DNA of 64,000 nucleotides, taken from the NCBI RefSeq assembly GCF_036632915.2, contig NZ_CP155552.1, positions 2,232,001 to 2,296,000 of the forward strand. The letters are read 5' to 3'. This document shows positions 46,330 through 61,306 of this stretch, in pieces. The position numbers and the translations under genes were made by a program. Source of the DNA: Faecalibacterium taiwanense (GTDB lineage Bacteria; Bacillota; Clostridia; Oscillospirales; Ruminococcaceae). Every line of letters starts with the position of its first letter. Position 1 is the first letter of the stretch. The notes under the pieces were generated by a model that saw only the letters and a program-made list of their open reading frames with translations, made no database searches and was not told where the DNA came from.

Positions 46330-46413
46330 GCCGGTGTGTCGGAATGGCAGACGAGGGGGACTCAAAATCCCTTGTGCTAATAACACGTGTGGGTTCGACC
46401 CCCACCACCGGCA
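46330..46413 (+). tRNA. tRNA-Leu (anticodon CAA)
   Basis: 84 bases. Acceptor GCCGGTG (46330-46336) pairs with CACCGGC (46406-46412), discriminator A at 46413. Anticodon arm GGGGA-CTCAAAA-TCCCT gives anticodon CAA at 46363-46365. The long variable arm (TTGTGCTAATAACACG) is that of a class II tRNA, and the T-arm reads GTGGGTTCGACCCCCAC. CCA is not encoded. Reads UUG codons. Confidence 0.95.
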
Positions 46414-46560
46414 TAAAAAGGAAGCCCTCCAGCTTGTCTGGGGGGCTTTCTTTTATCTGCGGCGTGTGAGCGGGTCGAACAGCACGACCCTGCACAGCAG
46501 GGGAGCAATCAGCCCTGCGGGCTGTTGCTCAGTGCGCGGGAGACCCCCACCACCGGCATA
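46370..46560 (+). repeat. 191-bp direct repeat, left copy, including 3' part of tRNA-Leu
   Basis: Identical base for base with 54586-54776. It starts in the anticodon stem of tRNA-Leu and runs through its 3' end, its terminator and 120 further bases. Near its right end the sequence ACCCCCACCACCGGCAT repeats the last 16 bases of the tRNA plus T, giving a nested tRNA-end copy at about 46543-46559. It has the form of an attachment site. Confidence 0.9.
46418..46456 (+). terminator. tRNA-Leu terminator
   Basis: AAGCCCTCCAG pairs with CTGGGGGGCTT, followed by TCTTTT. A second copy at 54634-54672 is part of the direct repeat. Confidence 0.85.
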
Positions 46561-46562
46561 GC

Positions 46563-46607
46563 AAGCAGCTCGAAATCGAAAGGTTTTGGGCTGCTTTTCT
46601 TTTTCTG
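46563..46607 (+). terminator. Hairpin with T run at the left end of the presumed island
   Basis: AGCAGC pairs with GCTGCT, then TTTCTTTTT. It lies directly after the left repeat. Confidence 0.5.
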
Positions 46608-46694
46608 CTCAGTTTCTTATACTTTGGTGTTTTCTGGGAAGATGCGGAATCATTTTCAGTTGTTGACCCGCTGACAGCCTGACACATTGCCTGC

Positions 46695-46730
46695 AAGCAC
46701 CGATTTCTTTGCGGAAACCGGTGCTTTTTG
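46695..46730 (+). terminator. Terminator-like hairpin upstream of the sensor kinase
   Basis: AAGCACCGATTTC pairs with GAAACCGGTGCTT (one mismatch region), followed by TTT. No gene ends just before it, so it may be a remnant of a lost gene. Confidence 0.6.
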
Positions 46731-46733
46731 CAA

Positions 46734-46762
46734 TTGCACTTTCCCCGGGAGATTATTATACT
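46734..46762 (+). promoter_or_regulatory. Promoter of the two-component system
   Basis: TTGCAC (46734-46739), 17-base spacer and TATACT (46757-46762), 43 bases before the kinase start. Confidence 0.75.
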
Positions 46763-46805
46763 TATAAAAAAGGCCGGGATGCTGCAAGGACAGGAGGGAA
46801 AGCGT

Positions 46806-48293
46806 ATGGCACGGAACAAAACCGCACAGGGCGGTATATCCCTGCGCCGCAAGGTCACGGCATGGCTTGCCGCGATTTTGCTGGTCACCATGCTTTCTAC
46901 TGGCATTGCTACCATGGCAGGTCAGTGGACGGTACGCTCCTTTGATATGCTGCTGGCCGACAACGCCGTCTGCTACACGGTGCAAAACGCCCTCAAGGAC
47001 GAAACACAGGCCTTTGCACGCTATGTGCGCCAGCCTACTTCTGAAACCGAACAGGCCTATACCGCCGCCTGCACCGCTTCCGAGCAGAGCCTTGCGGCCC
47101 TGCCCTTCGATTATGCCCGCATCGGCGAGGAGCGCTATGCCCGCACATGGAACCTTTTGCAAGGGTATGCGGGCTATCGGCAGGAGCGGGATGCCTTTTT
47201 GCAGCTTTCCCCCTCGGCAGATACCTATATTGAACAAATGTACCATGTGATGGCACTGCAGGACTACCTTGCCGAGTATGCGCTACGTCTGACACAGGCC
47301 ACGCTGGAACAGGAAAACGCCCTTTACAGCAGCACGGCGGCTCACATCCGGCATCTGCCGTGGCTGTATCTGGGGCTGTTCCTGACGGCGGCTGTACTGG
47401 TGCTGCTGCTCATCCGGGTGCTGAGCCGCGCTGTTGTGCGTCCGCTGCTGCGGCTGGCGCAGGCTTCCCGCAGCATTGCCGAGGGCGATTTTTCCAGGCC
47501 GGACCTACCGGTGAAAAGCAGCGACGAGGTGGGGCGGCTGACGGGAACCTTCAACCAGATGAAGCACGCCATGGCGCAGCAGCTGACCACCCAGCAGGCT
47601 TTGCACCGGGAAGAGGTGCGGAACCTTGCACTGGAAAAAGATCTGGAGCACACCCGGCTGGAGGTGCTTAAAAGTCAGGTGAATCCGCATTTTCTGTTCA
47701 ACACCCTGAACATGATCTCCTGCATGGCGCGGCTGGAGGATGCTTCCACCACCGACCAGATGATCGTGCATCTGGGCAGTTTGTTCCGGCACAACCTGCG
47801 CACCAAGCGCCAGCAGATCACGCTGGAGGAGGAACTGGACGGGCTGGAGGACTACATTTATTTGCAGCAAATGCGGTTCGACGGACGCATTACCGTAGAA
47901 AAAAGCATCCGGGTGCAGCCTGCGGCGGTTTTGGTGCCGTCCTTTATGCTGCAGCCTGTGGTGGAAAACGCTTACTCGCATGGGCTCAAGTCCCGCGAGG
48001 AAGGCGGACGCATCCTGCTGCGGGCATGGATGCAGGGCAAGGTGCTGGTGCTCACAGTTGCAGACAACGGCAAGGGGATGACCCCAGAGGAGCTGGATGC
48101 CGTGCAGGCAAAAATTGCCCAGAGCGAGCAGACCGGCCGCAGCATTGGCCTTGGCAATATTTCCCGCCGCATCGGGATGCTGTATCCGGGCGGTAAAATG
48201 CAGGTATACAGCCGCGCAGACTGCGGTACTGTGGTGCGGTTTGAGCTCCCGCAAACGCAGCAGCCGGAAGAAAAGGAGGAGACGCTCTCGTGA
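46806..48293 (+). CDS. Sensor histidine kinase, YesM/LytS type
   Basis: 495 residues from ATG 46806 (GGAGGG upstream). Two membrane helices (about 18-40 and 180-205) flank an extracytoplasmic sensor of about 140 residues. A HAMP domain follows (RPLLRLAQASRSIAEGDFS), then a coiled coil and the His_kinase domain with LKSQVNPHFLFNTLNMI (phospho-His), and an HATPase with VVENAYSHGLKS and ADNGKGM. The gene overlaps its response regulator. In this family the signal is commonly a sugar or organic acid, and the neighbouring TRAP transporter is the likely target. Confidence 0.92.
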   Translation: MARNKTAQGGISLRRKVTAWLAAILLVTMLSTGIATMAGQWTVRSFDMLLADNAVCYTVQNALKDETQAFARYVRQPTSETEQAYTAACTASEQSLAALPFDYARIGEERYARTWNLLQGYAGYRQERDAFLQLSPSADTYIEQMYHVMALQDYLAEYALRLTQATLEQENALYSSTAAHIRHLPWLYLGLFLTAAVLVLLLIRVLSRAVVRPLLRLAQASRSIAEGDFSRPDLPVKSSDEVGRLTGTFNQMKHAMAQQLTTQQALHREEVRNLALEKDLEHTRLEVLKSQVNPHFLFNTLNMISCMARLEDASTTDQMIVHLGSLFRHNLRTKRQQITLEEELDGLEDYIYLQQMRFDGRITVEKSIRVQPAAVLVPSFMLQPVVENAYSHGLKSREEGGRILLRAWMQGKVLVLTVADNGKGMTPEELDAVQAKIAQSEQTGRSIGLGNISRRIGMLYPGGKMQVYSRADCGTVVRFELPQTQQPEEKEETLS

Positions 48294-49081
48294 AGTGCAA
48301 ATTGCTGGTGGCAGAGGATGAATTGATCGAGCGCAAGGTGCTGTGCCGGACCTTGCAGAAGTATCTGGGAGACCTGATCTGCCTGTACGAAGCCAAAAAC
48401 GGCAGAGAGGCTCTGGAAATTTTTGCCCGCGAAGCGCCGCAGGTGGCTGTGCTGGACATTGAAATGCCGGGTCTCACTGGGCTGGAGGTGGCGCGCAAGA
48501 TCCGTGAAACAGACAAAAATTGCGCCATCCTGTTCCTGACCGGCTTTGATAAGTTCGACTACGCACGGCAGGCGATCTCTGTGCGGGCGATGGACTATCT
48601 GCTCAAGCCTTACAACGAGCAGGAACTGGTATTCGCGGTGGAGGATGCCATCCGGCAGGTGTCGGTGCCGCTGCCTGCCCACCCGGCACAGCCCCCTGCG
48701 CCTGCAGAGCCTCTCCGCCGGGAAGAGGACGAGGATATGCGCACCGCCATCATCCGTGCCGAGATCAGCCGCTTCATCGACGCTCATTATAGGGAGGATA
48801 TCTCCATGCAGGATGCCGCCGCTGCGCTGCGCTACTCGGACGCCTACTTCTGCAAGTTGTTCAAGCAGTGCTTTAAGGTAAACTTTTCGGCCTACCTGAA
48901 CGAATACCGGGTGGACAAGGCGCGCCAGCTGATTTTGGACCCGCGCCTGAGCCTGAAGGATATCGGCGCTGCTGTGGGTTACAGCGACGCCAACTATTTT
49001 ACAAGGGTGTTCAAGCGCCTGACCGGCCAGACCCCTTCGGAATACCGCGTAGCCGCAGCGGAAAAAGCGGCACAAGGATAA
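48290..49081 (+). CDS. Response regulator, YesN type (receiver plus AraC DNA-binding domain)
   Basis: 263 residues from GTG 48290, which overlaps the kinase stop (GTGA) and has GGAGG upstream. Receiver (1 to about 120) with AEDE, the phospho-acceptor in VLDIEMPGLTG and KPYNEQE. AraC-type C-terminal domain (about 165-260) with SMQDAAAALRYSDAYFCKLFKQ and DIGAAVGYSDANYFTRVFKR, the two HTH motifs. It probably activates the TRAP genes that start 226 bases downstream. Confidence 0.93.
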   Translation: MKCKLLVAEDELIERKVLCRTLQKYLGDLICLYEAKNGREALEIFAREAPQVAVLDIEMPGLTGLEVARKIRETDKNCAILFLTGFDKFDYARQAISVRAMDYLLKPYNEQELVFAVEDAIRQVSVPLPAHPAQPPAPAEPLRREEDEDMRTAIIRAEISRFIDAHYREDISMQDAAAALRYSDAYFCKLFKQCFKVNFSAYLNEYRVDKARQLILDPRLSLKDIGAAVGYSDANYFTRVFKRLTGQTPSEYRVAAAEKAAQG

Positions 49082-49095
49082 ATCGGATCCAAAAG

Positions 49096-49147
49096 AAGCG
49101 CTCGTTCTTTCCTGCCTGTGAACAGGAGAGGAACGGGTGCTTTTTTG
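49096..49147 (+). terminator. Terminator after the response regulator
   Basis: AGCGCTCGTTCTTTCCTG pairs imperfectly with CAGGAGAGGAACGGGTGCT and is followed by TTTTTT. Confidence 0.75.
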
Positions 49148-49183
49148 TTTTTGCCAGTTTTTTTCGTCCAAAAAACACAAAAA

Positions 49184-49272
49184 TTGTACTTGGATACAAC
49201 AAAGACAAAATCGTACTGCGTTTCACAAAATAATCCGGTTTCGCAAAAATGAACGAGTTGTTAAAATACAAT
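49184..49272 (+). promoter_or_regulatory. Candidate activator site and -10 for the TRAP operon
   Basis: TTGTA-CTTGGA-TACAA (49184-49199) is a perfect 5-bp inverted repeat. The -10 TACAAT is at 49267-49272 and no good -35 is visible, which fits an activator-dependent promoter. A related TCGTACTGCG lies at about 49211. Confidence 0.45.
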
Positions 49273-49306
49273 CATAGAAAAAACGTGAAAAGAGAGGATG
49301 CCATTC

Positions 49307-50332
49307 ATGAAGAGAAGAACGTTTTTGTCGCTGATGGGCGCAGCGGCACTGACCAGCAGCATGATGCTTACCGGCTGCGGTGCCGGCTCCGGTGACGACC
49401 GCAAGATCGTGCGCATCGGCCATGTGCAGTCCCAGACCCACCCGGATCATCTAGGACTGGAAGCCTTTGCCAACTACATCAACGAGAAGCTGGGCGATAA
49501 GTACCGTGTAGAGGTGTACCCCAGCGAGCTGCTGGGCTCCCAGACCGAAATGGTGCAGCTGACCCAGACCGGTGCCATCGACTTTGTGGTGGCGTCCACT
49601 GCCATCATGGAAACCTTCAGTGCCAAATACCAGATCTTCAACCTGCCTTACCTGTTCTCCAGCGTAGAAGCCTACCATGAGGCGATGGACGACCCCGAAG
49701 TGACGGACCCCATTTTCAAGACCACTTCCAAGGCCGGTCTGGAAACGGTGGCATGGCTGGATGCCGGCACCCGCAACTTCTACACCATCAAGACCCCCAT
49801 CAACCAGCCCTCCGACCTGAAGGGTCTGAAGATCCGCGTGCAGCAGTCGCCCACCAACGTGGAAATGATGCGTCTGCTGGGCGGCACCGCTACGCCCATG
49901 GGCTTCGGCGATGTGTACACCGCCTTGCAGGCCGGTATTCTGGATGGTGCCGAGAATAATGAGCTGGCTCTGACCGATAACGGTCACGGCGATATCTGCA
50001 AGTATTACTCCTACGATATGCATCAGATGGTGCCGGACCTGCTGGTGGCAAACTACGCCTTCCTGAACGAGCTCAGCGACGAGGAGCGCGCGATCTTTGA
50101 AGAGGGCTTCCAGATCGTGAAGCGCACCGAGCAGGACGCTTGGGAGGATGCCGTGACCGAGGCCAAGGACAAGGCCGAGAACGAGCAGCACGTCAACTTT
50201 ATTTACCCGGACACTGCACCGTTTCAGGAGGCTATGGCCCCCCTGCACGATTCCGTGCTGGCAGCAAACCCGGAATTGCAGCCCATTTATGACCTGATCC
50301 AGCAGCACAACGCTGCCCACACTGCGGACTGA
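49307..50332 (+). CDS. TRAP transporter solute-binding lipoprotein (DctP family)
   Basis: 341 residues from ATG 49307 (AGAGAGG upstream; the ATG at 49298 is too close to that site). The N-terminus MKRRTFLSLMGAAALTSSMM ends in lipobox LTGC (Cys24). The DctP fold shows FANYINEKLGDKYRVEVYPSE (long strand-helix), QTGAIDFVVAS, WLDAGTRNFY, DLKGLKIRVQQSP with the conserved Arg that binds a carboxylate, and GAENNELAL. The substrate is probably a sugar acid or other organic anion. The stop is 11 bases before dctQ. Confidence 0.93.
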   Translation: MKRRTFLSLMGAAALTSSMMLTGCGAGSGDDRKIVRIGHVQSQTHPDHLGLEAFANYINEKLGDKYRVEVYPSELLGSQTEMVQLTQTGAIDFVVASTAIMETFSAKYQIFNLPYLFSSVEAYHEAMDDPEVTDPIFKTTSKAGLETVAWLDAGTRNFYTIKTPINQPSDLKGLKIRVQQSPTNVEMMRLLGGTATPMGFGDVYTALQAGILDGAENNELALTDNGHGDICKYYSYDMHQMVPDLLVANYAFLNELSDEERAIFEEGFQIVKRTEQDAWEDAVTEAKDKAENEQHVNFIYPDTAPFQEAMAPLHDSVLAANPELQPIYDLIQQHNAAHTAD

Positions 50333-50343
50333 GGAGGAGCATC

Positions 50344-50898
50344 ATGGAAAAACTGAGAAATACCCTGAACAAGGTGCTCAACCTGCTGGCAGGTCTGAGC
50401 ATGACGGTCATGGTGGTGCTGACCACCTATCAGGTCATCGTACGTTATATTTTCAACTCTCCCTCCACATGGTCGGAGGAACTGGTGGGTTATCTGTTCG
50501 GCTGGAGCACCATGCTGGGTGCCACCATCGTCTCCGGCGAGCGCGGCCACATGAACATCCCCGTGCTGGTGGACCGGTTCAACCCCACCATGCGCAAGGC
50601 CTTCAACATTTTTGCCGAGATCATTGCGTTCGTTTTCTCCGCGACCATTCTGGTGTTCGGCGGTTTTCAGGTGTCCCAGCTGGCTATGGGACAGCAGACC
50701 TCCTCGCTGGGCGTAGCTGTGGGCGTGTTCTACTGGGTCATGCCCATCTGCGGCGTGATCATTCTGGTGTATTCCGTGCTGAACATTATCGGCATCGCCA
50801 ACGGCTCCATCTGTCTGGATACCCCGGAGGATGCAGACTTTGCAAAGGTGGAAGCCGAAATGGCTGCCGATGCCGACAAGGAAAATAAGGAGGACTAA
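50344..50898 (+). CDS. TRAP transporter small permease (DctQ family)
   Basis: 184 residues, four membrane helices. The family motif NSPSTWSEELVGYLFGW is at about 39-55. GAGGAGG precedes the ATG. An acidic Ala/Glu/Asp tail of about 25 residues extends into the cytoplasm. It bridges binding protein and large permease. Confidence 0.92.
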   Translation: MEKLRNTLNKVLNLLAGLSMTVMVVLTTYQVIVRYIFNSPSTWSEELVGYLFGWSTMLGATIVSGERGHMNIPVLVDRFNPTMRKAFNIFAEIIAFVFSATILVFGGFQVSQLAMGQQTSSLGVAVGVFYWVMPICGVIILVYSVLNIIGIANGSICLDTPEDADFAKVEAEMAADADKENKED

Positions 50899-50901
50899 GC
50901 T

Positions 50902-52203
50902 GTGGCAATTCAAGCGTTACTCGTAATTCTGGCAGTGCTGCTGGTGCTGCTGTTCCTCGGCGTGCCCATCTCGTACGCCATTGCAGTCTCTTCCCTGACT
51001 GCCATCCTTTCTTCCATTGACCTGAACGTGGCCGTGCTGACCGCTGCCCAGCGCACCTTTGTGGGCATGAGCAAGTTCAGTCTGACCGCCATCCCGTTCT
51101 TTATTCTGGCCGGCAACATCATGAATCAGGGCGGCATCGCCAAACGTCTGGTGGATTTCGTCATGGCTATTCTGGGCAAGATGCCCGGCGCACTGCTGGT
51201 GACCAACATCGGCACCAACGCTCTGTTCGGCGCCATCTCCGGCTCTGCATCCGCTGCGGCTGCCGCCGTTGGCTCCATGATCCGCGACGGTGCCGAGGAG
51301 CAGGGCTACGACCCCGCCGTGACCGCTGCCACCAATGCCGCTTCCTCCTGCTCCGGTTTGCTGATCCCACCGTCCAACGCCCTGATTACCTACTCTCTGG
51401 CATCCGGCGGCACCTCTGTGGCTGCGCTGTTCATGGCCGGTTACATTCCCGGCATCATCTGGGCGCTGTGCTGCTGCGTGGTGGGCGTGCTGCTGGCGGT
51501 CAAGCTGGGCTATAAAGGCACCCCCGGCAAGTTTGACTGGAAAAATCTCGGCATCTGCACCCTGCGCGCCCTGCCTTCCCTGTCCCTGATCATCGTGGTC
51601 ATCGGCGGCATCATCGGCGGTGTGTTCTCTGCCACCGAAGGCTCTGCCATTGCCGTTGTCTATGCGCTGATCCTTGCTTTCTGCTACCGCTCCATCAACC
51701 TGAAGAGCCTGTGGAAGATCCTCGTGGACTCTGCCAAGATGTCCGGCATGGTGGTGTTCCTTGTAGGCGTTTCCAACATTCTGGGCTGGGTCATGGCCTT
51801 TTTGCAGATCCCGGATGCTGTGGCGGCAGCTCTGCTGAGCCTGACCAGCAATAAGTACATCATCCTGCTCATCATGAACGTGATCCTGCTGGTGTCCGGC
51901 ACCTTTATGGATGTGACTCCGGCCATCCTCATCTTCACCCCGCTGTTCCTGCCCATCTGCCAGAGCTTTGGCATGAGCACCATCCAGTTCGGTCTGATCC
52001 TCGTGTATAACCTGTGCATCGGCAACATCACCCCGCCTGTGGGCAACGCACTGTTCGTGGGCATCAAGGTGGGCCGCACCTCGCTTTCCAAGGTCATGCC
52101 GTACATGCTTATGTACTATGTGGCCATCATCGGCGGCCTGCTGCTGGTCACCTTTATCCCGGCAGTGTCTACCGCACTGCCGCAGGCAATGGGCCTGATG
52201 TAA
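50902..52203 (+). CDS. TRAP transporter large permease (DctM family)
   Basis: 433 residues with about twelve membrane segments; starts with GTG after AAGGAGG. Signatures: FLGVPISYAIAVSS, FSLTAIPFFILAGNIMNQGGIAKRL, FGAISGSASAAAAAVGSMI, PPSNALITYSLASGG and NLCIGNITPPVGNALFVG. It forms the ion-coupled channel (Na+ in most members). Last gene of dctPQM, with a terminator 24 bases beyond. Confidence 0.94.
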   Translation: MAIQALLVILAVLLVLLFLGVPISYAIAVSSLTAILSSIDLNVAVLTAAQRTFVGMSKFSLTAIPFFILAGNIMNQGGIAKRLVDFVMAILGKMPGALLVTNIGTNALFGAISGSASAAAAAVGSMIRDGAEEQGYDPAVTAATNAASSCSGLLIPPSNALITYSLASGGTSVAALFMAGYIPGIIWALCCCVVGVLLAVKLGYKGTPGKFDWKNLGICTLRALPSLSLIIVVIGGIIGGVFSATEGSAIAVVYALILAFCYRSINLKSLWKILVDSAKMSGMVVFLVGVSNILGWVMAFLQIPDAVAAALLSLTSNKYIILLIMNVILLVSGTFMDVTPAILIFTPLFLPICQSFGMSTIQFGLILVYNLCIGNITPPVGNALFVGIKVGRTSLSKVMPYMLMYYVAIIGGLLLVTFIPAVSTALPQAMGLM

Positions 52204-52226
52204 CTGAGACATTCCCTTCTTCTCCT

Positions 52227-52264
52227 AAAAGGCGGTACCTGCTTTGCGGCGGGCACCGCCTTTT
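52227..52264 (+). terminator. Terminator after dctM
   Basis: AAAAGGCGGT pairs with ACCGCCTTTT around an internal CC/GG extension, followed by CC. Strong stem. Confidence 0.8.
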
Positions 52265-52272
52265 CCTGTCTC

Positions 52273-52302
52273 TTGCACAAAGGCAGTCTTATGCGCTATA
52301 CT
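52273..52302 (+). promoter_or_regulatory. Promoter of the orphan TRAP binding protein
   Basis: TTGCAC (52273-52278), 18-base spacer and TATACT (52297-52302), 24 bases before the start. Confidence 0.75.
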
Positions 52303-52325
52303 ATCTGCAAAGGGAGGGAGACACC

Positions 52326-53312
52326 ATGCGCAGACGGACTTTTTTAGCCGGGCTGGGCTTTGCAGCCTTGCAGCTGGCAGGCTGCAGCGCAAAGTCGCAG
52401 ACCACACCGGACTATGTGCTGACCTATGCCGACAACCAGCCCGCCGGGTACCCCACTACGCAGGGCGCGCAGTATTTTGCAGACCTTGTGCAGCAGCAGA
52501 CCGGGGGCAAGGTGGTCATTCAGGTCAAGGCGAACGGCGAGTACGGCTCGGAACAGCAGGTGTGGGAACAGCTTGCCATTGGCGGCGTAGATTTTGCCCG
52601 TGTGTCGCTCTCGGTGGTCACGGACGATCTGCCCCGGCTCAACGTGCTGCTGCTGCCGTATCTCTACCGGGATGCCGACCACATGTGGCGCGTGCTGGAC
52701 GGCAGCATCGGGGCTGAGTTTTTGCAGGACTTTACCGCGCAGGGGCGCGTGGGCCTGAGCTGGTACGACGCGGGTGCCCGCTCGTTCTATGCCCGTCAGC
52801 CGGTGCGCAGCCTAAGCGATCTGCAGGGCAAGACCATCCGCGTGCAGGATTCGCAGATCGTGATCGACATGATCCGCCTGCTGGGTGCAGTGCCGGAGAC
52901 CACGGCGTACAGCGATGTCTACTCGGCGCTTGAGACCGGGCAGATCGATGCCGCCGAAAACAACTGGCCGGCCTACTATTCCATGGAGCACTACAAGGTG
53001 GCACGGTACTACATGGCCGATGAGCACAGCCGCGTACCGGAGGTGCAGCTGGCTTCCGGCCGCACATGGGATGCACTGCCGGAGGAATATCGGCAGACCC
53101 TGCAAGCGTGCGCCCGGGCATCGGCGCAGTACGAGCGCCAACTCTGGGCACAGGAGGAAACAGCTGCCCGAAAAGCGGCATTGGCTGGCGGGTGCCGGGA
53201 ACTGCCGCTGCCCGAAGAAGAAATGCAGAACTTCCGGCAGCTGGTGCAGCCGCTGTACCGAAAATACTGTGCCGACTATCTGCCGCTGGTGGAAGAGATA
53301 CAGGCAGAGTGA
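52326..53312 (+). CDS. Orphan TRAP-type solute-binding lipoprotein (DctP family)
   Basis: 328 residues from ATG 52326 (GGGAGGG upstream). MRRRTFLAGLGFAALQLAGC ends in a lipobox (Cys20). DctP features: GVDFARVSLSVV, WYDAGARSFYARQP, SLSDLQGKTIRVQDSQIVID (ligand Arg in IRVQ) and IDAAENNWPAYY. It is distinct from the binding protein at 49307 and has its own promoter. It may be an alternative subunit for the same permease, widening specificity, or the extracytoplasmic input of the two-component system. Confidence 0.9.
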   Translation: MRRRTFLAGLGFAALQLAGCSAKSQTTPDYVLTYADNQPAGYPTTQGAQYFADLVQQQTGGKVVIQVKANGEYGSEQQVWEQLAIGGVDFARVSLSVVTDDLPRLNVLLLPYLYRDADHMWRVLDGSIGAEFLQDFTAQGRVGLSWYDAGARSFYARQPVRSLSDLQGKTIRVQDSQIVIDMIRLLGAVPETTAYSDVYSALETGQIDAAENNWPAYYSMEHYKVARYYMADEHSRVPEVQLASGRTWDALPEEYRQTLQACARASAQYERQLWAQEETAARKAALAGGCRELPLPEEEMQNFRQLVQPLYRKYCADYLPLVEEIQAE

Positions 53313-53404
53313 CAACCGAAAAGGGACGAGTCAAATAAAAAGGCTCACAGCTTTGAGGTTATGCTGCGGAGCACTTTTCCTCCACGTCCCCACTCCGTGG
53401 AACA

Positions 53405-53440
53405 GCAAACAAGCCAGACCCGCCGGTCTGGCTTGTTTGC
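53405..53440. terminator. Bidirectional hairpin between convergent genes
   Basis: CAAACAAGCCAGACC pairs perfectly with GGTCTGGCTTGTTTG around CGCC. It lies between the TRAP binding protein and the leftward secreted-protein gene; no T run on either side beyond the stem. Confidence 0.6.
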
Positions 53441-53513
53441 AATATCAAAATAAATGTTTCCGCTGAATATACCCAAGGTGCAGCGGAGGACCTTCTGAAT
53501 CAAAAACTCTCCC

Positions 53514-54215
53514 TTAGCTCACATATTCATCGGTCACGCTGATGATGTTGGCATTGCCTTCCAGACTTTCATACACGTTCACGACGGCATAGTGCATCTC
53601 AGCACCCGGATAAACCGTGGTTGCTTCGCACAGGATGCGGTAGTTCGTGCCTGCCACGGTCTGGGTGCTCAACAGAGCCACCGGCACATAATCCACACCT
53701 ACAAGGCCCTCGGTGGCCTTGTTGAACGCCGCCGTGGCTTCCTCCGTCATGGCGGGGGACTCCGCTTCCTGCCAGGTGCCCACAGCGTCTTCCTTGTAGT
53801 CCAGATTTGTCAGGCACAGCGGGTCGCCGATGTCCAGAATTTCTGCCTTGCCCAGCCAGCCGCGCTGCAGCGTGACCACAACATACTCTTCCTGTGCGCC
53901 CGGTACGACGACAGTCGCCTTGCACAGAATGCGGTACTGGATACCGGAGCCGGTGGTGCGGCTTGCCAGCAGGGCCACGGGCGTGTAGGAAACGCCCTCC
54001 AGACCTTCAAAGGCCTTGTCGAACACTTTGCGGACTTTCTCGGTCAGTGCCGGGTCGGAAGCACGCTTCCAGCTGCTGGAAATACAGTTTTCCTCAGCCA
54101 CAGCAGAAACTGGTTCCACCGTCTCTGCCGAAAGTGCGTATGCCTGTACCGCGCCGCCTGCCAGCAGGGAAAGAGCCATCACAGCCGTCATGCAAACAGA
54201 AACCGTCTTTTTCAT
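53514..54215 (-). CDS. Secreted two-repeat protein with cystatin-like QxVxG motif
   Basis: 233 residues from ATG 54215. A signal peptide (MKKTVSVCMTAVMALSLLAG, cleavage around AYA) is followed by two tandem repeats of about 85 residues. Repeat 1 runs from SSSWKRASDPALTEKVRKVF to the ILDIGDPL strand; repeat 2 runs from GTWQEAESPAMTEEATAAFN to ANIISVTDEYVS. Both follow helix, VPVALL strand, then YRILCEATTV strand, then VVNVY strand, the order of a cystatin fold. Repeat 2 has TQTVAGTNY, i.e. the QxVxG protease-contact motif; repeat 1 has SRTTGSGIQY and lost it. Each repeat has one Cys at the same place. Function unproven: protease inhibitor or another cystatin-fold secreted protein. Confidence 0.62.
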   Translation of the reverse strand: MKKTVSVCMTAVMALSLLAGGAVQAYALSAETVEPVSAVAEENCISSSWKRASDPALTEKVRKVFDKAFEGLEGVSYTPVALLASRTTGSGIQYRILCKATVVVPGAQEEYVVVTLQRGWLGKAEILDIGDPLCLTNLDYKEDAVGTWQEAESPAMTEEATAAFNKATEGLVGVDYVPVALLSTQTVAGTNYRILCEATTVYPGAEMHYAVVNVYESLEGNANIISVTDEYVS

Positions 54216-54585
54216 AATAATATATTCCCTCTTCTTATTGTGTGTCGCTGCCGGGGTGTGCACCCGGTTTTGTCGCTTCATTCTGGATACAAATGAGCCG
54301 CCCTCGGAATTGCACGGGTTTGAAATATTTTCCAAAAAAAGAAAAAAGCCTGTGTGCACAGTCCTGAATGACAGGCTCTGCATCCCTCCTGAACATCCCT
54401 CCAATTTCCATTTGGGCGATCCAAATCGAAAAAACAGAGTAGAGGGAAAACGCATCGAAAAATCGTGGATATTTCAAATTATTGTTCATTGAGGCGTGAA
54501 TTTTGCCTTTGTGAAGTGGGAACCAGATATCACTAGATATCACTGGATGACACCAGATGGAAGATGAGGATAAAAACTCAAAATT

Positions 54586-54776
54586 CCTTGTGCTAATAAC
54601 ACGTGTGGGTTCGACCCCCACCACCGGCATAAAAAGGAAGCCCTCCAGCTTGTCTGGGGGGCTTTCTTTTATCTGCGGCGTGTGAGCGGGTCGAACAGCA
54701 CGACCCTGCACAGCAGGGGAGCAATCAGCCCTGCGGGCTGTTGCTCAGTGCGCGGGAGACCCCCACCACCGGCATA
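54586..54776 (+). repeat. 191-bp direct repeat, right copy, with tRNA-Leu 3' fragment
   Basis: Identical to 46370-46560. Left of it ACTCAAAAT also matches the tRNA anticodon loop (54576-54584) before identity breaks at one base, so homology extends slightly further left. The tRNA 5' half is missing, hence no functional tRNA here. The 370 bases between the secreted-protein start and this copy hold no gene; short repeats of GATATCACT occur at about 54526-54545. Confidence 0.9.
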
Positions 54777-54958: not shown

Positions 54959-55804
54959 TTACAGCATTTTGACCGCCAGTGCTTCACTGGTGCGATCCTG
55001 TGCGGCGTTGGCATTTTCGGGGTCGTCCATGGTGTAGCGCAGCACCAGCACTTCAGCCACATACAGCAGCGCCACCTTGACCGGGATGTTGCCGGAGTCC
55101 AGCGGGCTTTCCTGCGCACCACACAGCAGCACGATATCCGCCAGCTTTGCGCCGGGCGAATCCTCATAATGGGTGAGCAGAATGATCTTTGCGCCCGCCG
55201 CCTTGGCCGCGCGCAGCGTTTCCAGCATATCGCGGGTAGCGCCGGAATAGGAAACGAACAGCACCACATCCTCCGGGGTCATCAGGCTGGCCGTGATCAG
55301 CTGCATATGGCTGTCGCCTGCCGTGCGGAACTTGGTGGAGAAGCAGGCAAAGCGGGCGCAGATATCATTTGCAATATACATGCTGCCGCCCTGACCAAGG
55401 CAGTACACCTGCCGGGCCTTGTGCATCAGCTCCGAAGCCTTGTCCACCGCCTCCGGCGAAAGATTGTTCTGGGTGCCGTTGATGGTAGTCATCAGCAAGG
55501 CGCTGGCGTGCTCGCACAAAGTTGCCGTGTCGGCATCCGGCTCCGGCACATGCTGGTTGACCAGTGCACCGGTGGCGTTGGCCTGCGCCAGCGCAATGCG
55601 CATTTCATGATAGCCCTCAAACCCCAGCGCCCGGCAGAAGCGGAACACCGTTGCCTCTGCCACACAGCACTCCTTTGCCAGCGAGGAGATGGACAGATAC
55701 TGTGCCTCTGCCGCGTGCTGCACAAGATAGTCCGCCACGGTGCGGCCCGATTTTGTCAGGTCGCCCTGATGCTGCTGCAGCAGCTCCCAAAAATTCGTTG
55801 CCAT
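54959..55804 (-). CDS. RpiR-family regulator of the sialic-acid operon (NanR-like)
   Basis: 281 residues. N-terminal HTH_6 domain (TVADYLVQHAAEAQYLSISS, LAKECCVAEATVFRFCRALGF) and C-terminal SIS sugar-phosphate-binding domain (QVYCLGQGGSMYIANDIC, LFVSYSGATRDMLETLRAAK). It is transcribed away from the nan genes with 473 bases between. RpiR regulators of sialate operons respond to N-acetylmannosamine-6-phosphate or related phosphosugars. Three TGAAA-N5-TTTC sites in the gap are its probable operators. Confidence 0.9.
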   Translation of the reverse strand: MATNFWELLQQHQGDLTKSGRTVADYLVQHAAEAQYLSISSLAKECCVAEATVFRFCRALGFEGYHEMRIALAQANATGALVNQHVPEPDADTATLCEHASALLMTTINGTQNNLSPEAVDKASELMHKARQVYCLGQGGSMYIANDICARFACFSTKFRTAGDSHMQLITASLMTPEDVVLFVSYSGATRDMLETLRAAKAAGAKIILLTHYEDSPGAKLADIVLLCGAQESPLDSGNIPVKVALLYVAEVLVLRYTMDDPENANAAQDRTSEALAVKML

Positions 55805-55986
55805 TTTTCTTTTTCCTCTTTTCCGGCGCAGCAGTCCACCGACCCGGATCAGCTGCCGACCGTTTCATTCACCTTTATAAAAAGTATAAAAGAATCGTCC
55901 CCGCTTCGCAAGAGACGCATTGCCCACATTTTGGCCCGCAGTTCTGTGCAGAGCACACAGTTTTGGCGGAAAAACTGGCCATTTTG

Positions 55987-56033
55987 TGAAAATATCTTTC
56001 AATTTTACATTTTTGTTTAGAAAAACATTTTCA
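55987..56033. promoter_or_regulatory. Two upstream operator copies for the RpiR-type regulator
   Basis: TGAAAATATCTTTCA (55987-56001) and, in opposite orientation, AGAAAAACATTTTCA (56019-56033; its complement reads TGAAAATGTTTTTCT). Both fit TGAAAATRTYTTTCW. They are 32 bases apart, about three helical turns. Confidence 0.65.
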
Positions 56034-56171
56034 CTATCGTTTTGGTGGGTTTGTACCATTTTGTAATAGTTTCAGAAGAGTAAAGCAAGATTTTCTTTGC
56101 ATTTCAACATATATCCCACACTTTTGTGCACAATGCACACTGTCATTCTGAAAATTTATGAAAACCATGAA

Positions 56172-56200
56172 TGGACAAAATGAAAATATTTTTCTATAAT
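56172..56200 (+). promoter_or_regulatory. nan promoter with operator across the -10
   Basis: TGGACA (56172-56177), 17-base spacer and perfect TATAAT (56195-56200). The third operator copy TGAAAATATTTTTCT (56181-56195) fills the spacer and touches the -10, a repressor position. Confidence 0.8.
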
Positions 56201-56277
56201 GGAGCCATCAAGAGCGGCCGCTGGCACGGCAGGCCGCCAACAACGTGAAGCATCTTGAATGCGAAGGAGAAACTACT

Positions 56278-57627
56278 ATGAAAAACTGCATTTCCCGCCG
56301 TTCGTTCCTGAAGGCCGCTGGCATTCTGGGCGCAGCCGGCGCTCTGGCCGCATGCGGCGGCTCTTCTGCAAGCACCAGCACTGCTGCTTCCACCGCAGGT
56401 TCTACTGCTGCAAGCGCAGCTGCTTCTTCCACCAGCATCAAGCTGTGGACATACCCCATCGGCGGCTGGGGCAATGACGACACTGTTCAGGGTCTGGTTT
56501 CCAGCTTCAACGCAAAGTATCCTGACATCAAGGTCACTGTGGAGTATCTGGACTACACCAACGGCGACGATCAGGTGAACACCGCCATCGAGGGCGGCAG
56601 CGCACCTGATCTGATCATGGAAGGTCCCGAGCGTCTGGTTGCAAACTGGGGCGCAAAGGGCGTTATGGCTCCGCTGAACGACCTGTGGACCGATGATGCC
56701 AAGAAGGACATCTACGAGTCCGTTGAGTCCGCCTGCAAGGACACTGCCGGCAACTACTACGAGTATCCCCTGTGCATGACCGCACACTGCATGGCCGTGA
56801 ACATGACCAAGGTCAAGGAAGTGGGCGCTGACCAGTACATTGATACCGACAAGCACACCTGGAGCACCGACGGCTTCCTGAAGACCGTTGACGCCCTGTA
56901 CAACGGCGGTTACGAGAACGTTGCAGCCATCTACTGCGCAGGTCAGGGCGGCGACCAGGGCACCCGCGCGATCATCAACAACATGTACGGCGGCACCTTT
57001 ACCGATGCAGCCCACACCAAGTACACTGCCGACTCCGCCGAGAACATCAAGGCGATCCAGACCCTGCACGACACCAAGGGCATCAACTTTGACGCTTCCA
57101 TCGCAGGCGGCGACGAGATCACCCTGTTCCGCAACGGCACCCTGCAGATGGCATTCTGCTGGAACATTGCACAGCAGGCCAACAGCGACAACAACGCCGC
57201 CGGTCTGACCAACGATGGCGACGAGATCTTCCCCATGGCCTTCCCCACCGACAGCGGCGACCCGAAGCTGTGTGGCGGCATCTGGGGCTTCGGCATCTTT
57301 GATAACGGCGACGAGGCCAAGATCGAAGCAGCCAGGACCTTCATCGACTTCATCGCTGCCGACCCCGATCAGGTCAAGGACAGCGTGCTGGCTTCCACCT
57401 ACTTCCCGGTCCGTACCAGCGTGGGCGACATCTACGCCGACAACGAGATCATGAGCGAGTACAGCAAGTTCATGGCTTATCTGGGCGACTACTACCAGAT
57501 CACTCCGGGCTGGGCAACCGCACGCACCGAGTGGTGGAACATGCTGCAGCGCGTCGGCTCCGGTGAGGATGTCGAGACTGCCGTCAAGACCTTTGTGGAC
57601 AACGCAAACGCTGCCGCACAGGCATAA
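56278..57627 (+). CDS. Sialic-acid ABC transporter substrate-binding lipoprotein (CUT1 family)
   Basis: 449 residues. MKNCISRRSFLKAAGILGAA contains a twin-arginine motif (SRRSFL) and lipobox LAAC (Cys26), with a Ser/Thr/Ala linker after it. Family-1 binding-protein features include APDLIMEGPERLVANWG and YEYPLCMTAHCMAVNMTKV. Its place as first gene after the RpiR operator region and before nanA/nanE/nanK makes sialic acid (Neu5Ac or a related form) the likely ligand. AAGGAG precedes ATG 56278. No ATPase gene is in the cluster; CUT1 importers often share an MsmK-type ATPase encoded elsewhere. Confidence 0.87.
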   Translation: MKNCISRRSFLKAAGILGAAGALAACGGSSASTSTAASTAGSTAASAAASSTSIKLWTYPIGGWGNDDTVQGLVSSFNAKYPDIKVTVEYLDYTNGDDQVNTAIEGGSAPDLIMEGPERLVANWGAKGVMAPLNDLWTDDAKKDIYESVESACKDTAGNYYEYPLCMTAHCMAVNMTKVKEVGADQYIDTDKHTWSTDGFLKTVDALYNGGYENVAAIYCAGQGGDQGTRAIINNMYGGTFTDAAHTKYTADSAENIKAIQTLHDTKGINFDASIAGGDEITLFRNGTLQMAFCWNIAQQANSDNNAAGLTNDGDEIFPMAFPTDSGDPKLCGGIWGFGIFDNGDEAKIEAARTFIDFIAADPDQVKDSVLASTYFPVRTSVGDIYADNEIMSEYSKFMAYLGDYYQITPGWATARTEWWNMLQRVGSGEDVETAVKTFVDNANAAAQA

Positions 57628-57667
57628 GCCCATCCACTCTGCCGGGGGCAGATAATTATTGACGCTT

Positions 57668-57708
57668 CGCCCCTTCCTCGAAGATCCCGACGAGGGAGGG
57701 GCTTTATT
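57668..57708 (+). terminator. Intercistronic hairpin between binding protein and permease genes
   Basis: GCCCCTTCCTCG pairs with CGAGGGAGGGGC, followed by TTTATTTG. Probably a partial terminator or mRNA stabiliser that makes the binding protein more abundant than the permeases. Confidence 0.7.
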
Positions 57709-57737
57709 TGTAAAAAAAATCATAACCGAAAGGAACG

Positions 57738-58661
57738 GTGATTCTCTTGGCTGCAAAAACGGCGATCAAAGAGCCTAAGCGCAGCAGTGCGCTGGTACGG
57801 CGCGAGACCTTCGCTTCCTATTGCTTCCTGCTGCCCAGCCTGATCTTCTTCCTGGGCTTCGTCATCTATCCCATGGTGCTGTGCGTGGTGACCAGCTTCT
57901 TCGATTCCACCATGAACCGTGCCGACATCTTTGTGGGGCTTGCAAACTATAAGGAACTGTTCACAGACCCCATCTTTCTGGGTGCCTTAAAGAACACCTT
58001 CATCATCGTGGTGGTGTCTGTGCCCGTCACCTGCGCCTTCTCGCTGTGGGTCTCCTCTGCCATCGTAGACCTGCCCGAGTGGGCTACCAGCCTTTTCCGC
58101 TGCGTGTTCTACCTGCCCGTGGTCACCGGCTCCGTGGCTGTTACCGTGGTGTGGAAGTGGATGTACAACAACTACTACGGCATCTTCAACTATCTGGGCA
58201 AGACTCTGGGCCTCATTGACAAGAACATCAACTGGCTGGGCGATGAGCGCTTTGCTCTGGGCTGCATCATCCTGATCCTGCTCACCACCTCTGTGGGCCA
58301 GCCCATCGTGCTGTACGTTTCCGCTCTGGGCAATGTGGACCAGTCCATCGTGGAAGCTGCAGAAGTGGATGGTGCCACCGATTTCCAGTGCTTCTGGAAG
58401 ATCAAGTGGCCCGCCATCATGCCCACCACTCTGTACATTCTGGTCATTACCACCATCAACTCCTTCCAGTGCTTTGCGCTGATCCAGCTGCTGACTTCCG
58501 GCGGCCCCAACCACAGCACCGATACCATCATGTACTACATCTACTACACCGCCTTCAAGCTGTACCGCTACGGCTACGGCAACGCAATGGGTGTGGTGCT
58601 GGCAGTCATCATCGCCATTCTGTCGGCTGTCCAGTTCAAGCTGGGCAACCAGGATAATTAA
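57738..58661 (+). CDS. Sialic-acid ABC transporter permease 1 (CUT1, MalF-like)
   Basis: 307 residues from GTG 57738 (AAAGGA upstream; TTG 57747 is an alternative). Six membrane segments starting FCFLLPSLIFFLGFVIYP-like. The EAA loop is EAAEVDGATDFQCFWKIKWP (about residues 213-232). FASYCF near the N-terminus and the C-terminal YRYGYGNAMGVVLAVI are typical of sugar permeases. The partner permease gene starts 15 bases downstream but is frameshifted. Confidence 0.88.
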   Translation: MILLAAKTAIKEPKRSSALVRRETFASYCFLLPSLIFFLGFVIYPMVLCVVTSFFDSTMNRADIFVGLANYKELFTDPIFLGALKNTFIIVVVSVPVTCAFSLWVSSAIVDLPEWATSLFRCVFYLPVVTGSVAVTVVWKWMYNNYYGIFNYLGKTLGLIDKNINWLGDERFALGCIILILLTTSVGQPIVLYVSALGNVDQSIVEAAEVDGATDFQCFWKIKWPAIMPTTLYILVITTINSFQCFALIQLLTSGGPNHSTDTIMYYIYYTAFKLYRYGYGNAMGVVLAVIIAILSAVQFKLGNQDN

Positions 58662-58676
58662 AGGAGGTGCCGGACA

Positions 58677-59650
58677 ATGAGTGCAAATGCCGCTGCAAAA
58701 AAGCAAAAACCGTTGAAGCGTCACCCCAGCAAGCTCAAGAAGATGAGCGCCTACATGATCCTGACGCTGATCCTCATCAGCATCGTTGCGGTGCTGTTCG
58801 CCTTCCCGCTGTACTGGATCATCACCGGTTCCTTCAAGACCGGTGCCGCCATCAATGCCACCACCCCCGAATGGTGGCCCAGCCAGTGGGTGCTGACCAA
58901 CTACCAGAAGCTGTTTTCCGGCAAGAGCGCCCCGCTGTGGCAGCTGGCTGTGCCCTTTGGTTCCAAGTTCAGCGCTAACGGCGAGCCCATCTACTTCTCG
59001 GTAGGCCCCACCGCTCCCGCTGCCATCCGCTGGATGCTCAACACCGTGTTCATGGCCGTCATGTCTATGATCCTCACCTGCATCACCGCCGCCATGGCCG
59101 GCTATGCACTGGCAAAAAAGCGCTTTGTAGGCCGCAAGCTGCTGTTCACCCTCATCGTGTGTGCAATGGCTCTGCCCAAGCAGGTCATTCTGATCCCCTG
59201 CTGCGCGAAATGAGCAGCCTGAACCTGTACAACACCATCTGGGCCGTCATCTTCCCCATCGTGGGCTGGCCCTTTGGTGTGTTCCTGATGAAGCAGTTCA
59301 GTGAGGGCATCCCCACTGAGATGCTGGAAGCAGCCCGCATCGACGGTGCAAGCGAGGCCAAGACCTTCATCGACATCGTGCTGCCCATGGTCAAGCCGGG
59401 CATCGGTGCACTGGCCATTTTTACCTTCATCAACAGCTGGAACGACTACTTCATGCAGTTGATCATGCTGTCCAGCACCAGCAACCTGACCATCTCGCTG
59501 GGCATTGCAAAGCTGCAGGCTGAGAACAGCACCGACTTTGGCCTGATCATGGCAGGTGCCGCACTGGCTGCTGTGCCTATCATCATCATCTTCCTCATTT
59601 TCCAGAAGTACTTTACCAAGGGCATCGCTATGGGTGCTGTTAAGGGCTAA
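58677..59650 (+). pseudogene. Sialic-acid ABC transporter permease 2 (MalG-like), frameshifted
   Basis: The frame from ATG 58677 (AAAGGAGG upstream) encodes a MalG-type permease until ILIPCCAK and stops at 59213. The rest continues in another frame from the same place: LREMSSLNLYNTIWAV, the EAA loop EAARIDGASEAKTF and the C-terminal KYFTKGIAMGAVKG to 59650. The family spells the junction ILIPLLREM, so one C missing from the run CCCC at 59195-59198 explains it; with it the product would be 324 residues. Either a sequencing/assembly error, a real inactivation or slippage at the C run. All other nan genes are intact. Confidence 0.88.
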
Positions 59651-59852
59651 AATCCCGACCGCCGCCTGCGGCGGAAACAGGAGGATTTTTGGCGCAGCGG
59701 TCTGCAAGACGCAAGGCCCGCCCAAGGGCCGAAGCGGATGCAGGGCACCGCAAGAGGGCATTGAACCCGTTACCCGAAACAGAAAGCGTACGAGCTTGAT
59801 GCAAAATCATTTCATCTGTATTTATTACTATTTTTAAAGAAGGGTTTGGAAC

Positions 59853-60782
59853 ATGAAAGATATCAAAAAATATCAGGGTGTCATCCCCGCCTTTTACGCC
59901 TGCTACGACGCAGAGGGCAATATTTCCACCGAGGGCGTCAAGGCCCTTACCCGCCATCTGATCGCCAAAGGCGTCAAGGGCGTGTATGTAGGCGGTTCCT
60001 CCGGCGAGTGCATCTACCAGCACGTGGATGAGCGCAAGGCCGTTCTGGAAGCCGTGATGAGCGAAGCCAAGGGCAAGCTGACCGTCATTGCGCATGTCGG
60101 CTGCAACAATACCGCCGACAGCGTGGAGCTGGCCCGCCATGCCGAGAGCGTGGGCGTAGATGCCATTGCATCCATTCCTCCCATCTACTTCCACCTGCCG
60201 GAGTACGCCATTGCAAAGTACTGGAACGATATGTCCGCTGCTGCTCCCAACACCGAGTTCGTCATCTACAATATCCCGCAGCTGGCAGGCACCGGCCTGA
60301 CCATGAGCCTGCTGAAGGAAATGCTCAAGAACCCCAATGTAGTGGCTGTGAAGAACAGCTCCATGCCCACGCAGGACATCCAGATGTTCAAGGATGCCGG
60401 TATCGCCGCCCGCGGCGAGGGGAATTTTGTGGTGTTCAACGGCCCCGATGAGCAGTTCGTTTCCGGCCGCGTCATCGGCGCAGACGGCGGCATCGGCGGC
60501 ACCTACGCCGTCATGCCCGAGCTGTATCTGGCCATGAACAACCACATCAACAAGGGCGAGATCGAAGCCGCCCGCGCCATCCAGTACGATGCCGACCGCA
60601 TCATCTACAAGATGTGCGAAGCCCACGGCAACCTGTACGCCGTGCAGAAGGAGATCCTGCGCCGGATGTACGGTCTGGAGCTGGGCGGCGTGCGTGAGCC
60701 GATGCCCGGCCTGATCCCGGAAGATGAAGCCATCGTGGCCGAAGCACAGGCCATGATCGAAGCTGCCATCGCAAAGCTGTAA
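59853..60782 (+). CDS. nanA: N-acetylneuraminate lyase (DapA/NanA family)
   Basis: 309 residues, class I aldolase TIM barrel. YVGGSSGECIYQ holds the carboxylate-binding Ser/Gly motif, FVIYNIPQLAGT the catalytic Tyr (YNIP) and VVAVKNSS the Schiff-base Lys. The YNIP and GGSSGE spellings agree with lyases of the sialate type rather than DapA. It cleaves Neu5Ac to ManNAc and pyruvate. AAGAAGGG precedes ATG. The 200 bases before it hold a GC-rich hairpin (CCGCC/GGCGG at about 59658-59676) and no gene. Confidence 0.9.
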   Translation: MKDIKKYQGVIPAFYACYDAEGNISTEGVKALTRHLIAKGVKGVYVGGSSGECIYQHVDERKAVLEAVMSEAKGKLTVIAHVGCNNTADSVELARHAESVGVDAIASIPPIYFHLPEYAIAKYWNDMSAAAPNTEFVIYNIPQLAGTGLTMSLLKEMLKNPNVVAVKNSSMPTQDIQMFKDAGIAARGEGNFVVFNGPDEQFVSGRVIGADGGIGGTYAVMPELYLAMNNHINKGEIEAARAIQYDADRIIYKMCEAHGNLYAVQKEILRRMYGLELGGVREPMPGLIPEDEAIVAEAQAMIEAAIAKL

Positions 60783-60792
60783 AATTGAAGCA

Positions 60793-60841
60793 GCGCCCCT
60801 CTCCGTCTCTTTTCAGAGGGGAGAGCGGGCGCTTGTTTTTG
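60793..60841 (+). terminator. Hairpin between nanA and the YhcH-like gene
   Basis: GCGCCCCTCTCC pairs with GGAGAGCGGGCGC, followed by TTGTTTTT. May be a partial terminator within the operon. Confidence 0.65.
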
Positions 60842-60853
60842 GAGGGACGTTTT

Positions 60854-61303: not shown

Positions 61304-61306
61304 ACG

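What the first reader, a model, noticed from the sequence alone, without database searches (positions are those of the whole stretch)
46370..54776. 8.2-kb segment bounded by a perfect 191-bp direct repeat that starts inside tRNA-Leu
Seen: 46370-46560 and 54586-54776 are identical and include the tRNA-Leu 3' half, its terminator and 120 bases more. Between them lie a YesM/YesN system, dctPQM, an orphan TRAP binding protein and a secreted protein. Established: integrases of islands and ICEs target tRNA 3' ends and leave direct repeats. Odd here: no integrase, and the repeat is far longer than normal att cores. Inference: an old island reduced by deletion, a duplication by recombination, or a cassette site that can loop out by homologous recombination.
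Basis: partly seen in the sequence, partly recalled or inferred. Interest (0 to 1): 0.8.

Follow-up and report, generated by a model that had tools for sequence, protein, structure and literature searches.

The report
Decayed mobile island beside tRNA-Leu gene
An 8-kb block of transport genes in a gut bacterium is the worn-down remnant of a mobile element that had inserted in a tRNA gene, and related elements at the same spot cut the host tRNA gene in two while bringing a spare copy of their own.

Summary
The repeat is real: 46370-46560 equals 54586-54776, and the match extends to 201 bp (46360-46560 / 54576-54776) with one mismatch. It starts in the anticodon stem-loop of tRNA-Leu(CAA).

The segment is most likely the relic of an integrative element at a hotspot used across Faecalibacterium. 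On the left, 46561-46643 is that family's left end, cut after the last 9 codons of its integrase gene. It is fused at 46643|46644 to the last codons of a Crp-type gene. Next comes a yesMN-dctPQM-dctP2 cassette, 95-97% identical to four species whose rpoB region is only 88-89% identical. At 54375 begins the family's right arm, then the core and a displaced tRNA 3' half.

The same-species genome G028 lacks the cassette and has a 48.5-kb element inserted within the same anticodon-loop core. "An old island reduced by deletion" is therefore the best reading. The repeat looks long because the true core is about 10 bp and both sides run into the same downstream DNA.

It resembles a CIME (cis-mobilizable element); competence of its left site is untested. 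More surprising is what relatives show: elements that split the host tRNA and carry a replacement tRNA-Leu(CAA).

The parts
46330..46413 (+). intact tRNA-Leu(CAA), the insertion target
   Evidence: ARAGORN
46360..46369 (+). insertion core ACTCAAAATC in the anticodon stem-loop; the same-species genome G028 is interrupted within this core by a 48.5-kb element
46360..46560 (+). left copy of the 201-bp direct repeat
46414..46541 (+). unit X: terminator-like hairpin plus dispersed palindromic repeat, no gene
46542..46560 (+). second copy of the tRNA 3' end (core2)
46561..46643 (-). left end of the element family, a relic: 46542-46643 is 99% identical to the G015 element end; 46617-46643 are the last 9 codons (stop included) of the tyrosine integrase gene
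46644..46674 (+). last 9 codons plus stop of a Crp-type regulator gene (and one base before them); the complete gene stands directly upstream of yesM in G014, and the same DNA in G003, G008 and G029
46806..48293 (+). YesM-type histidine kinase
   Evidence: Pfam His_kinase, HAMP, HATPase_c; start codon chosen by eye
48290..49081 (+). YesN-type response regulator with AraC domain
49298..50332 (+). TRAP solute-binding protein DctP
50344..50898 (+). TRAP small permease DctQ
50902..52203 (+). TRAP large permease DctM
52326..53312 (+). second TRAP solute-binding protein
   Evidence: searched from 52353
53514..54215 (-). secreted protein, no Pfam or NCBIfam match; its 3' part (to 53655) is linked to the cassette in G003
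54375..54575 (+). right arm of the element family; two CATCCCTCC repeats at 54381 and 54394; 94-96% identical to right ends in seven other genomes
54576..54585 (+). right core, ACTCAAAATT (the comparators have ACTCAAAATC)
54576..54776 (+). right copy of the repeat: displaced tRNA-Leu 3' half, X and core2

Best explanation
The 8.2-kb segment is a decayed integrative (conjugative or mobilizable) element, CIME-like, at the tRNA-Leu(CAA) hotspot of Faecalibacterium. Steps SHOWN by sequence: (1) the family's integrase elements sit in the anticodon loop of this tRNA at a roughly 10-bp core; (2) the segment carries that family's left-end scar at 46561-46643 and right arm plus core at 54375-54585; (3) its yesMN-dctPQM-dctP2 cargo is far closer to other species than the host genome is, and a same-species genome lacks it; (4) a junction at 46643|46644 joins the integrase tail to the tail of a Crp-type gene, so DNA carried between them elsewhere is missing here. 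Steps INFERRED: an element carrying the cargo arrived from another Faecalibacterium species and inserted, with its attP bearing the tRNA 3' half, so the tRNA was rebuilt at 46330-46413 and the old 3' half was displaced to 54576; one or more deletions then removed integrase, excisionase, replication and transfer genes, leaving cargo between two att-derived ends. Today it should be immobile on its own. It could be carried along if a new element of the family inserts at the tRNA core (accretion), or be lost by homologous recombination across the 201-bp repeat, which would restore tRNA-X-right flank.
For: The left-end scar 46542-46643 is 99% identical to a G015 element end, and the homology of seven further element left ends stops at about 46643-46648. 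The integrase tail IFPENTKV* matches the G028 integrase end IFPENAKV*. In G003, G008, G029 and G014 the DNA just before 46644 is a Crp-type gene, not an integrase (Pfam on the G014 copy). The right arm occurs full-length 9 times outside the window, and all 9 run into a core and a tRNA-Leu 3' half. All intact right ends share about 1 kb or more upstream of the arm, but the window's homology begins exactly at the arm, 54375. Same-species G028 has the same left flank (98.9%) and right flank (about 98%), a split tRNA and a 48.5-kb element in between, and no cassette match above 69% beyond short dispersed repeats. Cassette identity: G003 96.6, G029 96.1, G008 96.0, G014 95.1, G030 90.2, G012 83.6, G016 79.8%; rpoB-region identity: 88.7, 89.1, 88.0, 89.1, 95.2, 93.3, 89.0%. 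The rpoB tree puts the window's genome with G028 and then G030 (support 100); the cassette tree places it beside G003/G008 and away from G030 and G012. G003 and G008 have integrase fragments and the cassette within about 3.5 and 6.3 kb of the tRNA or displaced half.
Against: The left side has no CATCCCTCC arm repeats, which the G028 element has on both sides, so it cannot be called a complete attL. X-core2 lies between the tRNA and the left-end scar and is not explained by one simple insertion. The two window copies share a 1-bp deletion not seen in the six other aligned copies, which points to copying or gene conversion within this lineage and not only to independent donor and recipient copies. 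The right core has a C-to-T change. In G029 the cassette is 31 kb from the displaced half, in G014 it is on another contig, and in G030 and G012 it lies elsewhere on the chromosome, so it is not proven element cargo in the donor.
Confidence: 0.83

Rival explanations
1. The cassette came in by ordinary homologous or illegitimate recombination of chromosomal DNA from another Faecalibacterium species into an already element-scarred site; no element carried it.
For: The cassette sits near the same tRNA on the chromosome of G003 and G008 with element remnants between. The window's left junction has no evident homology.
Against: It needs an illegitimate join exactly at the start of the right arm (54375) as well as at 46644. 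A decayed element gives both ends at once.
Confidence: 0.2
2. The 201-bp repeat is a tandem duplication or gene conversion made by homologous recombination within this lineage, unrelated to site-specific insertion.
For: The copies share a 1-bp deletion absent from six other aligned copies.
Against: The left boundary of the repeat falls at the insertion core used by the family, and the right copy is preceded by the family's right arm, as in 9 of 9 other full-length arms. Gene conversion may still have homogenised the copies afterwards.
Confidence: 0.07
3. A working reversible cassette that loops out by homologous recombination between the repeats to switch the TRAP system off.
For: A 201-bp repeat, 99.5% identical, is long enough for RecA-dependent deletion (general knowledge). 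The predicted product equals the chromosome of G028 without its element.
Against: No recombinase or re-entry route is present; loss would be one-way. No reads were available.
Confidence: 0.05
4. Assembly artefact.
For: A repeat longer than short reads can be mis-joined.
Against: Single contig; copies differ at one base; flanks and right-hand structure are matched in G028; the odd left junction is not at the repeat edge.
Confidence: 0.02

Closest known systems
CIME (cis-mobilizable element) and tandem accretion, as in Streptococcus (PMC5704250, PMC7563491; passages seen)
   Same: Cargo between att-derived ends at a tRNA/housekeeping-gene hotspot, integrase and transfer genes lost, decayed elements and live elements stacked at the same site in relatives; classical CIMEs there are 1.2-13 kb.
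   Different: The left end lacks the arm repeats that the G028 element has; mobilization was not tested; here the remnant is directly next to the target gene, whereas PMC7563491 reports the most decayed elements as farthest from the target.
microCIME (130-220 bp, geneless; PMC7563491, passages seen)
   Same: Unit X is geneless and 145 bp from one tRNA 3' end to the next.
   Different: core2 holds only the last 19 bp or so of the tRNA pattern and lacks the ACTCAAAAT insertion core of this family, so it is not shown to be an att-bounded unit.
tRNA-dependent lysogeny of actinobacteriophages (PMC10865867, abstract and passages seen)
   Same: [quoted passage not shown] phage Gaia even uses tRNA-Leu-CAA, with Omega as the rebuilding counterpart.
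   Different: Here the carriers are conjugative or mobilizable elements of Faecalibacterium; need for the tRNA is untested, and a tRNA-Leu(UAA) is present in the window's genome.
Canonical tRNA islands (Islander, PMC4383910; start of abstract seen in a listing)
   Same: Target gene regenerated, displaced fragment marks the far end.
   Different: Here the regenerated tRNA and the displaced fragment are followed by a further identical 145 bp, making the repeat unusually long. Phage HP1 with a 182-bp att identity is a precedent that I recall; one search did not verify it.

Membership tests
CIME | integration and transfer genes lost | tested here: met
   Segment genes are YesMN, TRAP and a secreted protein; only a 9-codon integrase tail remains; own genome has no relative of the family integrase at E <= 1e-40, best 25% identity.
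CIME | derived from an ICE/IME by deletion | tested here: met
   Left-end scar fused to a Crp-gene tail; right arm without the about 1 kb that the intact right ends share upstream.
CIME | attR retained | tested here: met
   Right arm 94-96% identical with both CATCCCTCC repeats, core with one change (ACTCAAAATT), displaced 3' half. Function untested.
CIME | attL retained | tested here: inconclusive
   Core and tRNA present, but no CATCCCTCC repeats on the left, unlike the G028 element; other decayed left ends (G015, G003) lack nearby repeats too.
CIME | can be mobilized in cis after accretion of an ICE/IME | not testable with these tools
   Needs mating experiments.
microCIME (unit X) | geneless unit of 130-220 bp | tested here: met
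   145 bp between copies of the tRNA 3' end.
microCIME (unit X) | bounded by att sites of an integrative element | tested here: not met
   core2 lacks the ACTCAAAAT core.
tRNA-dependent integration (window segment) | host tRNA broken and replaced by an element-borne tRNA | tested here: not met
   The window's tRNA-Leu is intact and is its only tRNA gene. The feature is met in relatives, not here.
tRNA-dependent integration (relatives' elements) | short core, host tRNA split, same-isotype tRNA carried | tested here: met
   9 of 31 genomes have the split tRNA-Leu with a complete tRNA-Leu(CAA) 186 or 372 bp downstream.
tRNA-dependent integration (relatives' elements) | element tRNA required for survival | not tested
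   Needs gene removal; tRNA-Leu(UAA) may also read UUG (general knowledge).

The most novel reading that the evidence does not exclude
The window holds a relic of a family of conjugative or mobilizable elements that practise 'tRNA-dependent integration'. They cut the host tRNA-Leu(CAA) in the anticodon loop with a roughly 10-bp core and replace it with their own complete tRNA-Leu(CAA), placed just before the integrase. That tRNA then serves as a fresh landing site, giving ladders of broken tRNA 5' halves and stacked elements. This would extend the 2024 phage phenomenon to conjugation, tie the host's decoding of UUG to the element, and explain why this site keeps collecting elements and remnants such as the 8.2-kb segment.
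Probability: 0.6. Interest if true: 0.65.

Novelty: new member of a known kind. Interest (0 to 1): 0.42.

Why it matters
It shows, with junctions to the base, how a transport and regulation cassette entered one Faecalibacterium genome through a tRNA hotspot and stayed after the vehicle decayed. The site itself offers a testable case of mobile elements that break an essential-looking host tRNA gene and supply the substitute, known so far (in what I could search) for phages.

Tried and rejected
GC and GC3 of the segment against its flanks: not informative. A resident integrase able to move the segment: none close in the window's own genome. Filing X as a microCIME: size fits, att bounds do not. 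Calling the G028 element a full ICE: it has integrase, HTH_17 proteins, RepA_N, ParA and relaxase but no match to T4SS-DNA_transf or P-loop_TraG inside it, so IME or decayed ICE. The G029 element has relaxase, coupling protein and VirB4-like matches inside it; the G015 element has the same three, the VirB4-like one being a 338-aa frame. The rpoB tree was wrong because loci had mixed strands; it was redone with direction adjusted. A loop meant to print the Crp proteins of G003, G008 and G029 printed nothing; for those three the claim rests on the DNA shown. No paper on these Faecalibacterium tRNA-Leu elements, or on conjugative elements with a replacement tRNA, appeared in the listings (one search listed 12 of 17).
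Full report
OBSERVATION. The direct repeat is confirmed: 191 bp identical, extending to 201 bp with one mismatch (46360-46560 and 54576-54776). It begins in the anticodon stem-loop of the window's only tRNA gene, tRNA-Leu(CAA) 46330-46413. Each copy reads: core ACTCAAAAT(C/T), tRNA 3' half, terminator-like hairpin, dispersed palindrome, and a second tRNA 3' end. In the own genome (one contig, 2,955,389 bases) the whole stretch matches only these two places; four other hits are short.

THE SITE IN RELATIVES. The genus set held 31 genomes including the own one. In 20 of 31 the tRNA-Leu(CAA) is intact. In 9 of 31 (G002, G008, G013, G014, G015, G027, G028, G029, G030) the gene is split after the anticodon-loop core. 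For G021 the matching gene is tRNA-Leu(UAA), and for G026 no locus was fetched. In G030 the 5' half is more diverged (90%) and was recognised. The right arm (window 54375-54575) has matches in 9 of 31 genomes, G013 only in a 25-base motif. Outside the window there are 9 full-length copies in 7 genomes and one partial copy in G015. All 9 continue into a core and a tRNA-Leu 3' half. A related integrase (498 aa, Pfam Phage_integrase) gave 7 full-length matches in 6 of 11 searched genomes, and truncated pieces beside this tRNA site in G003, G008, G015, G018 and G030; the own genome has none at E <= 1e-40, and its best match is 25% identical. The same search also found more distant integrases (42-53%) elsewhere in several genomes.

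SAME-SPECIES COMPARISON. G028 (labelled same species; contig length equals Faecalibacterium sp. I4-3-84) has the left flank at 98.9% up to the core, then a 48.5-kb element, the right arm, the displaced 3' half with X, and the same right flank at about 98%. It has no copy of the cassette: its best matches to the segment are 67-69% paralogous stretches and short dispersed repeats. The nearest other species show right flank after the tRNA (G012) or after a displaced 3' half (G030), with no X and no cassette there.

JUNCTIONS. Left: window 46561-46643 matches the left end of these elements (46542-46643 is 99% to G015) and includes the last 9 codons of the integrase gene, stop included (IFPENTKV*, G028 has IFPENAKV*). 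At 46644 the sequence becomes the end of a Crp-type gene (RNHFQLLTR*), and the DNA directly upstream of this point in G003, G008, G029 and G014 is that gene (the G014 protein hits cNMP_binding and HTH_Crp_2). Right: homology to element ends starts exactly at 54375. The intact right ends share roughly 1 kb or more upstream of the arm with each other, which the window lacks (one decayed G015 copy shares only 277 bp). In G028 the genes there include an HTH_17 protein and RepA_N, then ParA.

ORIGIN OF THE CARGO. Over 6.5 kb the cassette is 95-97% identical to G003, G008, G029 and G014, 90% to G030, 84% to G012 and 80% to G016 (5.1 kb). Over about 5 kb around rpoB the order is reversed: G030 95%, G012 93%, the others 88-89%, and G028 99.2%. 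The rpoB-region tree joins the window's genome to G028 and G030 with support 100. The cassette tree puts it next to G003+G008 (that pair 97; neighbouring splits 78 and 92) and far from G030 and G012. Transfer between species is the straightforward reading. Where the cassette lies in the others varies: about 3.5 kb from the tRNA in G003 and 6.3 kb from a displaced half in G008, both with integrase pieces; 31 kb away in G029; another contig in G014; elsewhere on the chromosome in G030 and G012. So carriage by an element is inferred, not shown.

MECHANISM. Shown: element ends at both sides, deletion-type junction, foreign cargo, hotspot. Inferred: arrival by an integrase of this family with an attP whose tRNA 3' half rebuilt the gene, then decay. 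The length of the repeat follows from the core lying in the anticodon loop and from both sides carrying the same 3' half and X. Not explained: why X-core2 stands between the tRNA and the left-end scar. X-core2 is found before several different sequences (right flank in the window and G028, element left end in the window and G015, others in G008, G018, G029). The two window copies share a 1-bp deletion absent from six other aligned copies, which hints at gene conversion; it is one indel in a run of T and weak evidence. An alternative order of events, in which a second element upstream excised and left this one behind, fits the stacked arrangement of G008 and G015 but is not needed.

KNOWN KINDS. 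CIMEs are elements that lost integration and transfer genes but kept attL and attR, often stacked by accretion (passages of PMC5704250; PMC7563491). The window segment fits except that the left site lacks the CATCCCTCC repeats present on both sides of the G028 element. ICE/IME abundance in F. prausnitzii is already noted (passages of PMC6295017). The segment is therefore a new member of a known kind.

THE MORE UNUSUAL THING. In the split-tRNA genomes the host 5' half is followed, 186 bp from its start, by a complete tRNA-Leu(CAA) belonging to the element, or by another broken 5' half and then the complete gene at 372 bp (G002, G013, G029). G014 has the displaced 3' half of such an element tRNA behind a right arm, as expected if one element inserted in another's tRNA. 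G027 has a different left arm and a different tRNA-Leu(CAA) at the same 186-bp spacing. Relaxase matches lie inside the G028, G029, G015 and G002 elements (G002 partial); coupling protein and VirB4-like matches lie inside G029 and G015 but not inside G028, G002 or G030. This parallels tRNA-dependent lysogeny of phages (abstract and passages of PMC10865867). PMC11476347 (passages) mentions the idea for phage-related sequences of Sinorhizobium. I found no report for conjugative elements in the searches. Whether the host depends on the element tRNA is untested; the window's genome also has tRNA-Leu(UAA), (UAG) and (GAG).

Noticed in passing
L037 10533-12356 (G028); L041, L046, L048, L053, L056, L031, L032: Elements split tRNA-Leu(CAA) in the anticodon loop and carry a complete tRNA-Leu(CAA) 186 bp downstream of the host 5' half, before the integrase; ladders of two broken halves in G002, G013 and G029.
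   Followed up: partly
L033 1501-1771 (G027): A separate version: different left arm and different replacement tRNA-Leu(CAA), same 186-bp spacing.
   Followed up: partly
L070 1-278 (G014): Right arm followed by the displaced 3' half of an element-borne tRNA and then an element left end, as expected for insertion of one element into another's tRNA.
   Followed up: partly
tRNA-Leu(CAA) 3' ends: Genomes with untouched sites mostly encode the 3' CCA, while the genomes with element traces at this tRNA mostly do not (for example CGGCATAA in the window).
   Followed up: no
window 53514-54215 (-): Secreted protein without Pfam or NCBIfam match; by eye two similar halves of about 90 residues. An 80% relative lies in G012:C66.
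   Followed up: no
window 54959-62955: Right flank is an RpiR-type regulator, sugar ABC transporter and genes resembling sialic-acid breakdown (lyase, epimerase, ROK kinase).
   Followed up: partly
window 46475-46540: Part of X is a dispersed palindromic repeat with diverged copies at many places in the genus.
   Followed up: no
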